Assembly: GCA_026982915.1 (NCBI GenBank)
Contig: JALWQU010000148.1
Span: 1-14,691, forward strand
Origin: Candidatus Altimarinota bacterium
GTDB taxonomy: Bacteria; Patescibacteriota; Gracilibacteria; UBA4473
Length of the DNA stretch: 14,691 bases
Direction of reading: 5' to 3'
The position numbers and the translations under genes were made by a program. A model generated the notes under the pieces. That model was not told the DNA's origin and made no database searches. It worked only from the letters and a program-made list of their open reading frames with translations. The first letter of the stretch is position 1, and the number at the start of each line of letters is the position of its first letter. Shown in pieces: positions 845 through 9,075 of the stretch.

Positions 845-3800
845 CTACTTTTTTATCAATTTTTGTTGGGCGATTCTTTCTGATAAGGTCTGCACTTCGT
901 GATCCTTCAAGACAGGTCTACGAAATGGACTTTTTTTCCACTGTGGTACTTTTTTTAATTCTGTTTGTTTCGACGCTGATGGTTTCAGAGGCACTTCGAT
1001 AATCTTCCCGACTTTGCCAATCCAAATAGTATCCACCAAGAAATTGGTGGTATTGCCAGCCGTATCTGTCGCAGTAGCGTAAATATCCAGGGGTTTGCCA
1101 ATGAAGTTTTTTATATTTTGGGGTATTATAAACGCCCGATTTTCTGGCACAAAATCTGTAGCGCCTAGCCAGTGAAGATCTACCTCAAATCGGTCCCCTA
1201 CTTTTCTATCCACCGGTCCGTGGTACCGCAACCAATCTCCGGGCAAAAAGGCACCATCTCGTCCACTGGCACCGGTTATAAAACCTTTATCCGTATAAAC
1301 CGTTGGCATATTATCAATAATGATTTTTGGGGAGTTGAGCAGGACAATTCGCTTTCCCTGACTGTTCGAAACCTCAATCGGAAAAACAACCGATTTACGA
1401 TCGATATACCCCTGTCTTATCTGAAATGATTGACCTGGTTTTTGCATTCCAAATATACCGAGATTACTGTAGTTTATTCGATAATTTTCCAATGGATGTC
1501 CCGATGGAGCATGATAGGTAATCCAGTCACCAATACGAAAGACGCCATCTTTTCCGGTAGCACCAGTGAAATAACCTCCCTCATATCGCTTAATACTATA
1601 ACGACAACTCTGACCACACGTGGTTATTTGTGTTGGTTGTGGTGATGGCAATGGCGTTTCTGGTACTGGATCATCACCATAAAGTCCTTCCCACAAAGGC
1701 CCCCACTTGGACTTACAAGCCGCTGATTTTGGAGAAGGCACACAAGCATCATTGGGATCAGTATCCGCCCCGTCAGAAACGCCATCACTATCTCTGTCAA
1801 GGATCAGACAAGCCAGTGATAGATTATTGGGAATACACGCATCCGTTGGATTCGGATCGACCGTATCCTTTATTTGATCTCCATCTTGATCTGACTCAAT
1901 AGTGATAATAAATATTTTTTCAAAACTTCCTGATCCATCATCAACCTTTACACGAATGGAATAAAAAGGATTTGTTGTAAAATCATAAACAGCGTTTGTC
2001 TTTAACTGATTGCCCACAATACTAAAACTCGCATTCCCCGTATCACCGATACCAGATACAAGTGAATAAATTTCTGCCGTATGCTCTTGATCATCCTGCA
2101 TGGTAAAGGTCCCAATCAGTGTACCAATTCGTTGCCCCTCGATTAAAAGATTATTACTGAGAAAAATATCGGTTGGGGGCGTATTAAGATCGTTTATTTG
2201 AATCGCAAAAGCCTTCTCAAAATCATTAAATCCATCATTGGTATTAATTCGAATCATGTAAGTCGATTTGGCTTCATAATCAAAGACATCATTGGAAACA
2301 AGGGTTGTGCCTATAATTTTAAAAGACGCATTATCGGAGTCACCCTCTCCAGATACGAGCGAATAGGTGTAAGGACCAACAATATCTTCATCTAGTGTTG
2401 TAAGGTTTCCGATAAAAGTATTGGGTGGTTCATTTTCATCAATATCAACCGCTGATAACAAAATATCATAAGGAATATTCTGACAAAATTTCCCCGGCTG
2501 TACCGTAAAGCTGGCGGAGCCTGAAGGTGATTTTGTTTCTAAAAAGTCATAAAAAGGTGTATCCACTTCAGGCGTAAGGAGATGATTATTTTGAAGACGC
2601 AGACCATCATGTTCGACCAGATTATTAAGATTTTTAATACTCAGTGGTATTTCACAGCTTAACTCGTTATCAGAAAGATAGAGATACTCCAAATTTGCCA
2701 GCGCTCCAATACTCGGTGGAATCGACCCCGTAAGATTATTACTACTAAGCGAAAGGGTTCTTAGACTTGGACTCAATCCAATGGTATCAGGAATTGAGCC
2801 TGAAAAGTTATTATTCCCCAGTAATAGATGCTCTAACTCAGACATAAGTCCAAAAAAATTAGGAATACCGCCATGAATATTATTATTGTTATCAAGCCTT
2901 AGCGCTCGTAGGTTTGAAAGATGAACAAGGCTCGAAGGTATTTCTCCCGAAAGCCCCTCCGCTGAAAGTTCTCGAACATGTATCTTACCATCAACTTCCT
3001 CGTTTACAAGATGGTTCCATTTTGACGGATCTGATTCGGTTTTCCAGTTAAGATTGGAACTATCACCATCAAGCGCGTTATAAAAATCAACCAAAGCCTG
3101 ACATTCATCCTCTAAAAAATAAGTCTGGGTACTACAATTTAGAAATTCATCATCCTGAACATCATCAATTTGAATAGTGAAATTTTCAGCATAGCTATTA
3201 AGGCCGTCCGAAACATTGATACGGATATCATAATGCGTCTTTGTTTCATAATCAAAAACCGCATTAGACCGTAACTGACTACCAACGATCTGAAATTCAC
3301 TATTATCCGTATCACCAAAACCACTAACAAGCGTAAAGGTAAAAACAGCGCTATCTGGGTCGACGGCCGAAAGATTCCCAACTAGAGAACCAACTGGCAC
3401 GGCTTCATTGACATGATCATCATCCAGAACAATATCTATTGGTGGTAGCTGTGGCAGATTACAAGCCGGAACATTTTGGTTACTAAAATGTTCCACACCT
3501 ACGGGTGATTTATCATTGAGGAAAAGGTCTAAAACAGACCCAACAACCGGTACTTGCAAATTATTACGCGCTACCTGTAAACCAATATGAAAGGTTAAAT
3601 TCGTAAGCGAGGTAAAGGTATTGGGTATCGCACAAGACAGTTTATTGTCATTAAGATAAAGCCGCTCAAGACCTACTAAGTTCCCCACCTCATCGGGAAT
3701 CGTTCCAGAGAGGTTATTATGGTTAAGGTAAAGGTACTTTAACGCTACAAGATCCCCTATTTCAATCGGAATTTCACCCGAAAGATCATTACCCGAAAGA

Positions 3801-8294: not shown

Positions 8295-8326
8295 AAAAAA
8301 CTCTAACTTTCGGTCAGAGTTTTTTT
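8295..8326. terminator. strong bidirectional intrinsic terminator
   Basis: A ten-base-pair stem, AAAAAACTCT (8295-8304) with AGAGTTTTTT (8316-8325), is topped by a small inner ACT/GGT stem with loop TTC. Both strands end in a U-run (seven T on +, six on -), so it can stop transcription from either side. On the - strand it lies six bases after the hammerhead ribozyme and insulates corC from the 125-aa unit. Confidence 0.85.
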
Positions 8327-8331
8327 ACTAT

Positions 8332-8384
8332 TCCTTTTTCGTCGTTTTCGACTCATCAGATCGGACACACATCCGGTGAAAGGA
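8332..8384 (-). ncRNA. type III hammerhead self-cleaving ribozyme
   Basis: Read on the - strand, all conserved core parts are present in order. Stem III 5' strand UCCUU (8384-8380) is followed by the cleavage triplet UUC. Stem I ACCGGA (8377-8372) pairs with UCCGAU (8365-8360) across loop UGUGUG. Then come core CUGAUGA (8359-8353), stem II GUCG/CGAC with loop AAAA (8352-8341), core GAAA (8340-8337), and stem III 3' strand AAGGA (8336-8332). Stem III is the open stem, so it is type III. Self-cleavage is predicted between 8378 and 8377. Stem I and its loop (ACCGGAUGUG) and the core are nearly identical to the satellite tobacco ringspot virus ribozyme. One flaw is a C-A mismatch at the second base pair of stem I, which may slow cleavage. 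The chance of all core and stem parts matching at random in a short window is very small. Confidence 0.9.
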
Positions 8385-8385
8385 T

Positions 8386-8424
8386 GGAATTATGCGAGAG
8401 GTTTTTAAGCTCAAGCATAATCCC
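8386..8424 (-). ncRNA. hairpin immediately upstream of the hammerhead
   Basis: The arms GGAATTATGC (8386-8395) and GCATAATCCC (8415-8424) pair at nine of ten positions. The stem continues with GAG/CTC after a two-base bulge. After ribozyme cleavage at 8378/8377 this hairpin would sit right at the new 3' end of the upstream RNA, with only a few unpaired bases beyond it. The structure is seen in the sequence; the protective role is inference. Confidence 0.55.
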
Positions 8425-8440
8425 AAGTTTTTAGTGCCGT

Positions 8441-8491: not shown

Positions 8492-8869
8492 TTACTTTCT
8501 CTTAGAAAGACAGCGCAAACAATCAATCAATATATTATCGTTGTCAAAGATCTCAACCTCTATTAGGGCATCTTTCCCTTGGCTGGGATCAAAATAAGCA
8601 ATTCCATCACTTTGTTTTTTTAGTATTAATCGTACTTCAGCTTTCCATTCATCAGGAATAATGAAACGGTCTTGTTTTATTAATGTAAGCATTCCCTTAG
8701 TGAATGGTTCATTGTTTCGTAGGTAGTTACGGAAAAAACCAAAAGTATCAGTATTCCCTATTTTTTCCTGATGTTCGGTTCTTAATTGCTCAGTACTAAT
8801 TTTTTTTACGAGCTCTTTATCGATAAGTTTATTAATTTTTTCTATTGATAAAATTACTATTTCAGACAT
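8492..8869 (-). CDS. orphan 125-aa protein linked to hammerhead RNA
   Basis: I do not recognise a family. The product is a small soluble protein with no signal or membrane segment. Its N-terminal half is charged and probably helical, rich in Lys and Glu. The second half has strand-like runs and ends in an acidic patch (DALIEVEIFDNDN) followed by a basic tail (LSKRK). The start at 8869 is well supported by AGGAG at 8876-8880, six bases before the ATG. This is the only strong Shine-Dalgarno among the starts visible here. The gene is flanked upstream by operator-like repeats and downstream by a structured 3' UTR, the hammerhead ribozyme and a terminator, so it looks like a self-contained unit. 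The last codons lie inside one arm of a 17-bp inverted repeat. It could be a mobile-cassette, phage-derived or toxin/antitoxin-type protein, but nothing in the sequence decides this. Confidence 0.75.
   Translation of the reverse strand: MSEIVILSIEKINKLIDKELVKKISTEQLRTEHQEKIGNTDTFGFFRNYLRNNEPFTKGMLTLIKQDRFIIPDEWKAEVRLILKKQSDGIAYFDPSQGKDALIEVEIFDNDNILIDCLRCLSKRK
8497..8513 (-). repeat. left arm of 17-bp inverted repeat
   Basis: On the - strand this reads CTGTCTTTCTAAGAGAA, a perfect copy of 9059-9075 on the + strand. It covers the last codons of the 125-aa gene. Similarity may continue a further 15 bases or so with gaps (TAACGGCTCCTT here, TAAAGCCTCCTT there). Confidence 0.75.
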
Positions 8870-8982: not shown

Positions 8983-9060
8983 ACCAAGGAAACATGAAAT
9001 ACAGGAAATAAAATAATTTTTACCAAATCATACATGAAATACGGATTAAATATTTTTTCT
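8983..9060. repeat. diverged tandem direct repeat, two 39-bp units
   Basis: Units 8983-9021 and 9022-9060 both begin ACCAA, share ACATGAAATAC (8992-9002 and 9032-9042), and end in a similar GGA-TAAA and T-rich run. They abut directly and differ by substitutions and a one-base shift. They lie 114-191 bases upstream of the 125-aa start, directly against the right arm of the 17-bp inverted repeat. Confidence 0.5.
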
Positions 9061-9075
9061 GTCTTTCTAAGAGAA
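9059..9075 (+). repeat. right arm of 17-bp inverted repeat
   Basis: CTGTCTTTCTAAGAGAA on the + strand, matching 8497-8513 in inverted orientation. The two arms enclose the 125-aa gene and its upstream repeats (about 579 bp from end to end). It abuts the hairpin at 9078-9100. Confidence 0.75.

What the first reader, a model, noticed from the sequence alone, without database searches (positions are those of the whole stretch)
8332..8384. Hammerhead ribozyme of the plant-satellite type in a bacterial intergenic region
The - strand carries a complete type III hammerhead: CUGAUGA, stem II GUCG/CGAC, GAAA, a five-base-pair stem III and stem I ACCGGA/UCCGAU, with predicted cleavage after UUC at 8378. 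Stem I, loop I and core nearly repeat the satellite tobacco ringspot virus ribozyme. It sits between an orphan gene and an intrinsic terminator, in the same orientation as both. Bacterial hammerheads are known, but their roles are largely unexplained, and this gene context is one I do not recognise. A C-A mismatch in stem I is the only visible defect.
Basis: partly seen in the sequence, partly recalled or inferred. Interest (0 to 1): 0.88.

Follow-up and report, generated by a model that had tools for sequence, protein, structure and literature searches.

The report
Hairpin-capped hammerhead ribozyme ends bacterial mRNA
A small-genome bacterium carries what looks like a real self-cutting RNA, a hammerhead ribozyme, just after a gene of unknown function; about half of its relatives in bacteria and phages have a small hairpin right before the cut, which suggests that these ribozymes make protected RNA ends.

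Summary
In detail: 8332-8384 (-) is a type III hammerhead with predicted cleavage after C8378. It misses Rfam's cut-off (19-23 bits against 48.5), but so do 18 of 18 loci with relatives. A covariance model of 61 relatives, window excluded, scores it 69.4 bits, E 3.7e-23. No second hammerhead was found in its genome. The model hits 35 of 379 genomes sampled from the phylum at E<=1e-6. New here: an 11-bp hairpin (8385-8425) ends directly at the ribozyme. Such hairpins precede 20 of 40 genomic and 19 of 41 viral type III hammerheads, about 1 expected in each; none of the 81 has one starting within 5 nt downstream. Type I hammerheads of the viral contigs lack it (0 of 37), but their own stem III leaves a hairpin at the cut end. 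My reading: self-cleavage gives the upstream mRNA a hairpin-capped 3' end. Cleavage and function are untested. Against full activity, the stem I C-A mismatch occurs in none of 91 aligned relatives.

The parts
8492..8869 (-). orphan gene, 125 aa, with AGGAG ribosome-binding site; predicted mRNA body upstream of the ribozyme
   Evidence: Only the window's own protein found at E<=0.001 among 5.8 billion; no PHROG hit at E<=1 and no Pfam hit near its cut-off (best E 0.096).
8385..8425 (-). 11-bp hairpin (arms 8425-8415 and 8395-8385) that abuts the 5' strand of stem III; predicted 3' end of the mRNA after cleavage
   Evidence: -16 kcal/mol, z -5.2, 0 of 200 shuffles as stable (the 41 nt 8384-8424, without the outermost T8425-A8385 pair); z -6.2 for the 50 nt that end at 8385; 11 pairs, gap 0.
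8332..8384 (-). type III hammerhead ribozyme
   Evidence: 69.4 bits, E 3.7e-23 with model R1, which excludes the window.
8377..8378 (-). predicted cleavage site, between C8378 (H17) and A8377
   Evidence: Position fixed by the hammerhead core; inferred, not shown.
8361..8376 (-). stem I mismatch C8376-A8361
   Evidence: Unpaired at this place in 0 of 61 rows of A1 and in 0 of the 30 other rows of A2.
8295..8325 (-). intrinsic-terminator-like hairpin with T run, directly after the ribozyme
   Evidence: Scans; sequence.

Best explanation
A type III hammerhead sits in the 3' untranslated region of a one-gene transcript: orphan gene, 11-bp hairpin, hammerhead, intrinsic terminator. RNA polymerase makes the whole RNA and stops at the terminator. 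The hammerhead then cuts after C8378. The orphan mRNA keeps a new 3' end: the hairpin plus the seven nucleotides UCCUUUC, ending in a 2',3'-cyclic phosphate. The terminator leaves on a separate RNA that begins with a 5'-OH and stem I. The hairpin-capped, phosphate-blocked end should resist 3' exonucleases, so the module makes a defined and stable mRNA end. In phages the same module stands between genes and would cut a long transcript into units. Shown by computation: the ribozyme's fold and conservation, and the hairpin's position and its absence from type I hammerheads of the viral contigs. Inferred: the transcript, cleavage in the cell, the end chemistry (established for hammerheads in general), and the stabilising effect.
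For: The window matches an independent model. A hairpin of at least 7 pairs ending 5-9 nt before the cut is found in 20 of 40 genomic and 19 of 41 viral type III hammerheads, against 1.30 and 0.58 expected; in 11 of 29 model hits from the phylum sample, against 1.09; and in 13 of 31 and 13 of 32 with stricter redundancy and one per contig. Slots after ordinary stop codons give 2.3-3.1%, binomial P about 1e-20, with rows not fully independent. None of the 81 has such a hairpin starting 1-5 nt downstream of the ribozyme, and within 10 nt only the window has one, its terminator (which replaces the downstream part, whose mirror could not see G-U pairs). Type I hammerheads lack an upstream hairpin (0 of 37 at 7 pairs, 0.32 expected; 1 of 37 at 6 pairs, 1.01 expected; Fisher 3.9e-7 against viral type III), while their stem III, closed by a loop, leaves a hairpin at the 3' end of the upstream product. 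Of 40 viral type III hammerheads 33 have a stop codon within 200 nt upstream (median 32 nt; 16 of 40 on the opposite strand) and 14 a start codon with a Shine-Dalgarno-like site downstream (median 22 nt; 2 of 40 on the opposite strand).
Against: No cleavage was measured. The stem I mismatch is in none of 91 aligned relatives, so this copy may be slow or decaying. Half or more of the relatives have no hairpin by my criterion. By folding energy alone the 50 nt upstream beat 95% of shuffles in only 14 of 37, 1 of 3 and 13 of 42 hammerheads. The plain fold of 8326-8400 is not the hammerhead, and the computed share of the hammerhead fold is low for the window (0.002), though that calculation ignores tertiary contacts and enforced a lone pair beyond the mismatch. 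A terminator already follows the ribozyme, so the gain from cleavage is less obvious here than between phage genes; of the 41 rows printed only the window and L034 have a terminator within 60 nt. In genomic loci the stop-codon and start-codon context hardly differs between strands (35 against 30 and 12 against 5 of 39).
Confidence: 0.5

Rival explanations
1. A decaying relic. The module came in with a phage or mobile gene and is now inactive or nearly so, because of the stem I mismatch; it has no present role.
For: The mismatch is in none of 91 aligned relatives; single copy; neither the orphan gene nor the end of the A2M gene lies beside the CNNM gene in the 19 other loci from 18 relatives of the same family, for the up to 1.5 kb of flank that was fetched; orphan protein without relatives.
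Against: Everything else is intact: core, stems II and III, the 11-bp hairpin (z -5.2), both loops. Neutral decay should have hit more than one of these positions.
Confidence: 0.25
2. The hairpin is a folding insulator: it keeps upstream mRNA from mispairing with the ribozyme, and the ribozyme itself has some other role.
For: The hairpin directly abuts stem III.
Against: The computed hammerhead share is above the median for shuffled upstream sequence in 17 of 32 with hairpin and 16 of 35 without, so no benefit shows; type I hammerheads in the viral contigs do without such a hairpin (0 of 37). The calculation ignores tertiary contacts and co-transcriptional folding.
Confidence: 0.12
3. The ribozyme makes a small regulatory or circular RNA, or regulates the orphan mRNA on a signal.
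For: Hammerheads occur in circular RNAs of viroids and satellites (PMC6155905, passages); several hammerheads lie close together in some relatives, such as L140.
Against: Only one hammerhead was found in the genome (genome 92% complete), so no circle by paired cutting; the loops are the short standard ones, with no sensor domain.
Confidence: 0.05
4. Chance resemblance to a hammerhead.
For: Rfam's gathering score is not met; 8 of 14 control genomes also ring with RF00008 at E<=10.
Against: 69.4 bits, E 3.2e-21 for the genome with a model that excludes the window.
Confidence: 0.02

Closest known systems
Type III hammerhead ribozyme (Rfam RF00008; viroid and plant satellite hammerheads)
   Same: Core, permutation (stem III open), UH cleavage site, three stems, loop I facing a short loop II.
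   Different: DNA-encoded in a bacterial gene context, preceded by a hairpin and followed by a terminator; a C-A mismatch in stem I; below Rfam's cut-off.
[quoted passage not shown] 2011, PMC3088659; section 6, passages)
   Same: Bacterial, next to a small gene of unknown function, same strand.
   Different: Single ribozyme, no recognisable phage gene in the window, terminator right behind it. The word 'hairpin' occurs twice in the paper's main text; I saw one of the two, about loops of stems, and no upstream hairpin module in what I read.
Prokaryotic hammerheads flanking small non-conserved ORFs (2017 review, PMC6155905, passages)
   Same: Small non-conserved ORF beside the ribozyme; role called an open question.
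   Different: The passages that I saw do not mention candidate-phyla-radiation hosts or an upstream hairpin.

Membership tests
Type III hammerhead ribozyme | conserved core CUGAUGA ... GAA, A15.1-U16.1 pair, UH before the cut | tested here: met
Type III hammerhead ribozyme | three helices, with stem III the open one | tested here: met
   6 + 4 + 5-of-6 pairs, one C-A mismatch; helices covary across relatives (A1 was partly chosen by pairing, A2 is fitted to the model's structure)
Type III hammerhead ribozyme | loop I / loop II tertiary contact | tested here: inconclusive
   both loops match the relatives' consensus; the contact itself cannot be tested here
Type III hammerhead ribozyme | Rfam RF00008 gathering score (a curators' cut-off, not a property of the RNA) | tested here: not met
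   19.1 and 23 bits against 48.5; 0 of 18 loci with relatives meet it either
Type III hammerhead ribozyme | self-cleavage | not testable with these tools
   needs a bench assay
Clustered prophage hammerheads (PMC3088659) | two or more hammerheads flanking genes | tested here: not met
   one hammerhead found in the genome (genome 92% complete)
Clustered prophage hammerheads (PMC3088659) | phage genes nearby | tested here: not met
   the orphan and the 91-840 protein have no significant PHROG or Pfam hit; the other three tested are LRR, CNNM/CBS and A2M proteins by Pfam. The contig is only 14.7 kb.
Hairpin plus type III hammerhead module (defined here) | hairpin of at least 7 pairs ending 5-9 nt before the cut | tested here: met
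   11 pairs, ending 7 nt before H17

The most novel reading that the evidence does not exclude
Prokaryotic hammerheads are makers of mRNA 3' ends. In every permutation the upstream product is left with a hairpin at its 3' end: in type I (and, by its layout, type II) that hairpin is the ribozyme's own stem III; type III, whose stem III is open, is supplied with a separate hairpin directly upstream. Phages and candidate-phyla-radiation bacteria thus share a protein-free way to cut transcripts into units with protected ends.
Probability: 0.4. Interest if true: 0.8.

Novelty: new variant of a known kind. Interest (0 to 1): 0.62.

Why it matters
The role of bacterial and phage hammerheads is called an open question in PMC6155905 (passages), and PMC10085705 (passages) says the reason for their association with certain genes is unknown. 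A hairpin placed where the ribozyme's own layout does not provide one is a specific clue to 3'-end formation and can be tested directly. It also shows a hammerhead population in candidate-phyla-radiation bacteria that Rfam's cut-off passes over. My searches for print on this found nothing: hammerhead ribozymes + Patescibacteria, 0 papers; hammerhead + self-cleaving ribozymes + candidate phyla radiation, 0 papers; listing of 10 of 49 papers, none of the ten containing the words candidate phyla radiation. The library is open-access only and lacks most subscription journals.

Tried and rejected
Loose core pattern in 99 genomes: 96 match, no use. Orphan protein search: no relatives; Pfam and PHROGs nothing significant. 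Synteny: neither the A2M nor the orphan gene lies beside the CNNM gene in the 19 other loci from the family, within the fetched flanks. Insulator role of the hairpin: not supported. Inverted repeat around the orphan gene as a repeated mobile element: the only exact copies in the genome are the two here, plus one place with two mismatches. Annotated phage records: no match to L045 or L059 and only a 21-base match, E 0.4, to the window. Paired hammerheads for a circular RNA: no second hammerhead found. Structure prediction of the orphan protein did not finish, so nothing is claimed from it. The host lineage is not named by the tools; 'candidate phyla radiation' rests on the record titles of relatives, sorted by me from recalled taxonomy, and I did not prove it for the window's own genome.

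Limits of the counts: the structural scanner favours paired stems, so covariation in A1 and the absence of mismatches there are inflated; A2 comes from the model and still leans to its structure. A1 holds only hammerheads of exactly 53 nt (62 with the window); others with longer loops were left out. Of 75 viral loci, 54 pass the scanner; of 32 genome loci, 28 pass by rule, but L161 is poor on inspection, so I count 27. Titles that name candidate-phyla-radiation bacteria 21 of 21, other named 1 of 5, unnamed 5 of 6. The 40 genomic hammerheads include several from L140; stricter counts are. The downstream control was flawed (its mirror could not see G-U pairs) and was repeated properly; the outcome within 5 nt is the same (0 of 81), and the repeat also shows the window's terminator at 8 nt.

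Full report
WHAT IS THERE. The - strand of 8332-8384 reads as a type III hammerhead: six-pair stem III (8384-8379/8337-8332), C8378 as the nucleotide before the cut, stem I 8377-8372/8365-8360 closed by UGUGUG, CUGAUGA, a four-pair stem II with loop AAAA, GAA. One pair of stem I, C8376-A8361, is a mismatch. Upstream on the same strand lies a 125-aa ORF (8492-8869) with a good ribosome-binding site and no relative found among 5.8 billion proteins other than itself. Downstream lies a terminator-like hairpin with a T run, 8325-8295. Other genes of the window encode an LRR protein, a CNNM/CBS membrane protein and an alpha-2-macroglobulin.

IS IT REAL. Rfam's model gives 19.1 bits and, over the whole genome, 23 bits with E 0.0099, below the gathering score of 48.5. 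One search looked through 353 genomes of the same class with Rfam's model: none passes its cut-off and 11 have a match at E<=0.3; five of the matches in other genomes (L032-L036, from G329, G287, G283, G350 and G303) are hammerheads by structure. Pattern scans for loop I plus core returned 75 viral loci and 32 genome loci, of which 54 and 27 hold a hammerhead by structure (one by-rule pass, L161, dropped on inspection). The 21 genome loci whose titles name candidate-phyla-radiation bacteria (my sorting, from recalled taxonomy) all hold one; of five titles naming other bacteria only one does (Henriciella); of six unnamed, five. I aligned 61 hammerheads of equal length without the window, built a covariance model and searched the window: 69.4 bits, E 3.7e-23; in the genome E 3.2e-21 and no second copy. 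Rfam's type I and II models find none in the genome either. With the new model 18 of the 353 class genomes match at E<=0.01, but only the window's own, G303, G287 and G329 do so at E<=1e-8. Over 379 genomes sampled from the phylum, 35 have a match at E<=1e-6, the window's genome included. In a test of 18 loci with relatives none reaches any hammerhead cut-off of Rfam, so Rfam's cut-offs pass this family over.

THE HAIRPIN. Directly before stem III the window has an 11-bp hairpin, 8425-8415/8395-8385; the stretch 8384-8424 folds at -16 kcal/mol, z -5.2. I asked whether relatives have the same. A hairpin of at least seven pairs whose 3' end lies 5-9 nt before the cut occurs in 20 of 40 genomic and 19 of 41 viral non-redundant type III hammerheads, against 1.30 and 0.58 expected from the same contigs; most of them end 5-7 nt before the cut. 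The phylum sample, gathered afterwards with the model, gives 11 of 29 against 1.09. One hammerhead per contig with stricter redundancy gives 13 of 31 and 13 of 32. Positions after ordinary stop codons give 2.3-3.1%. None of the 81 has such a hairpin starting within 5 nt downstream of the ribozyme; within 10 nt there is one, the window's own terminator. Against this: half or more of the relatives show no hairpin by this rule, and by folding energy alone only 14 of 37, 1 of 3 and 13 of 42 upstream stretches beat 95% of their shuffles.

WHY TYPE MATTERS. In 15 of the fetched viral loci I found 37 non-redundant type I hammerheads; none has such an upstream hairpin (0.32 expected; with six pairs 1 of 37, 1.01 expected; Fisher against viral type III 3.9e-7). 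After cleavage, the upstream product of a type I hammerhead ends in its own stem III, a closed hairpin. The upstream product of a type III hammerhead ends in the single 5' strand of stem III, and here the separate hairpin stands. So with either type the upstream RNA can keep a hairpin at its new 3' end. That is the ground for the 3'-end reading. A folding-insulator role was tested and not supported. In viral contigs the type III ribozymes lie between genes: 33 of 40 have a stop codon within 200 nt upstream, at a median of 32 nt, and 14 of 40 a Shine-Dalgarno-like start downstream, at a median of 22 nt, against 16 and 2 of 40 on the opposite strand. In genomic loci the contrast is weak (35 against 30 and 12 against 5 of 39; all). 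The window and L034 instead have a terminator right after the ribozyme (2 of 41 rows).

DOUBTS. No tool here can show cleavage. The mismatch in stem I is found in none of the 61 rows of A1 nor in the 30 other rows of A2, though both sets lean to paired stems. This copy may be slow or on its way out; still, the core, both other stems, the loops and the hairpin are intact. In thermodynamic folding without tertiary contacts the hammerhead is not the favoured fold.

COMPARISON WITH PRINT. Perreault et al. 2011 (PMC3088659; passages, section 6) found hundreds of bacterial hammerheads, on many occasions arranged around genes in prophages, showed cleavage of three tandem sets in vitro and of one in E. 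coli, and wrote that phage transcripts may be cut into operon- or gene-length mRNAs. The 2017 review (PMC6155905, passages) notes small non-conserved ORFs beside them and calls the role open. A 2023 paper (PMC10085705, passages) says the reason for their association with certain genes is unknown. I saw no upstream hairpin module in these passages. Searches with Patescibacteria or candidate phyla radiation found no hammerhead paper (listing only). The ribozyme is thus a new member of a known kind; the hairpin-plus-type-III module is, as far as these searches go, a variant not described before.

VERDICT. Ribozyme fold and membership: about 0.97. Cleavage by this copy in the cell: about 0.65. Hairpin-capped 3'-end formation as its job: about 0.5. 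These are judgements, not computed numbers.

Noticed in passing
L045, L046, L047, L053, L055, L076 (viral contigs): These viral contigs carry two to seven different type I hammerheads within about 8-14 kb; some also hold type III ones. No match to annotated phage records for L045.
   Followed up: partly
window 8497-8513 and 9059-9075: A perfect 17-bp inverted repeat encloses nearly the whole orphan gene; these are its only exact copies in the genome. It could pair the mRNA's 5' leader with the 3' end of the ORF. Unexplained.
   Followed up: partly
L140 (CAINCE010000073.1): Five type III hammerheads in one 8 kb stretch together with an Rfam DUF3800-IX RNA.
   Followed up: no
L036 and L149: Two genomes share a small protein (112 and 116 aa, similar by eye at the C-terminus) as the nearest gene upstream of their hammerheads; no Pfam family above its cut-off.
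   Followed up: no
L033, about 1000-1400 (-): A hammerhead at the end of a stretch of about 300 nt without a convincing ORF, which looks like a structured noncoding RNA.
   Followed up: no
L034 and L035: Genomes of two families share a 124-nt stretch, 85% identical, that holds hairpin and hammerhead, behind different small genes, as if the module moves.
   Followed up: partly
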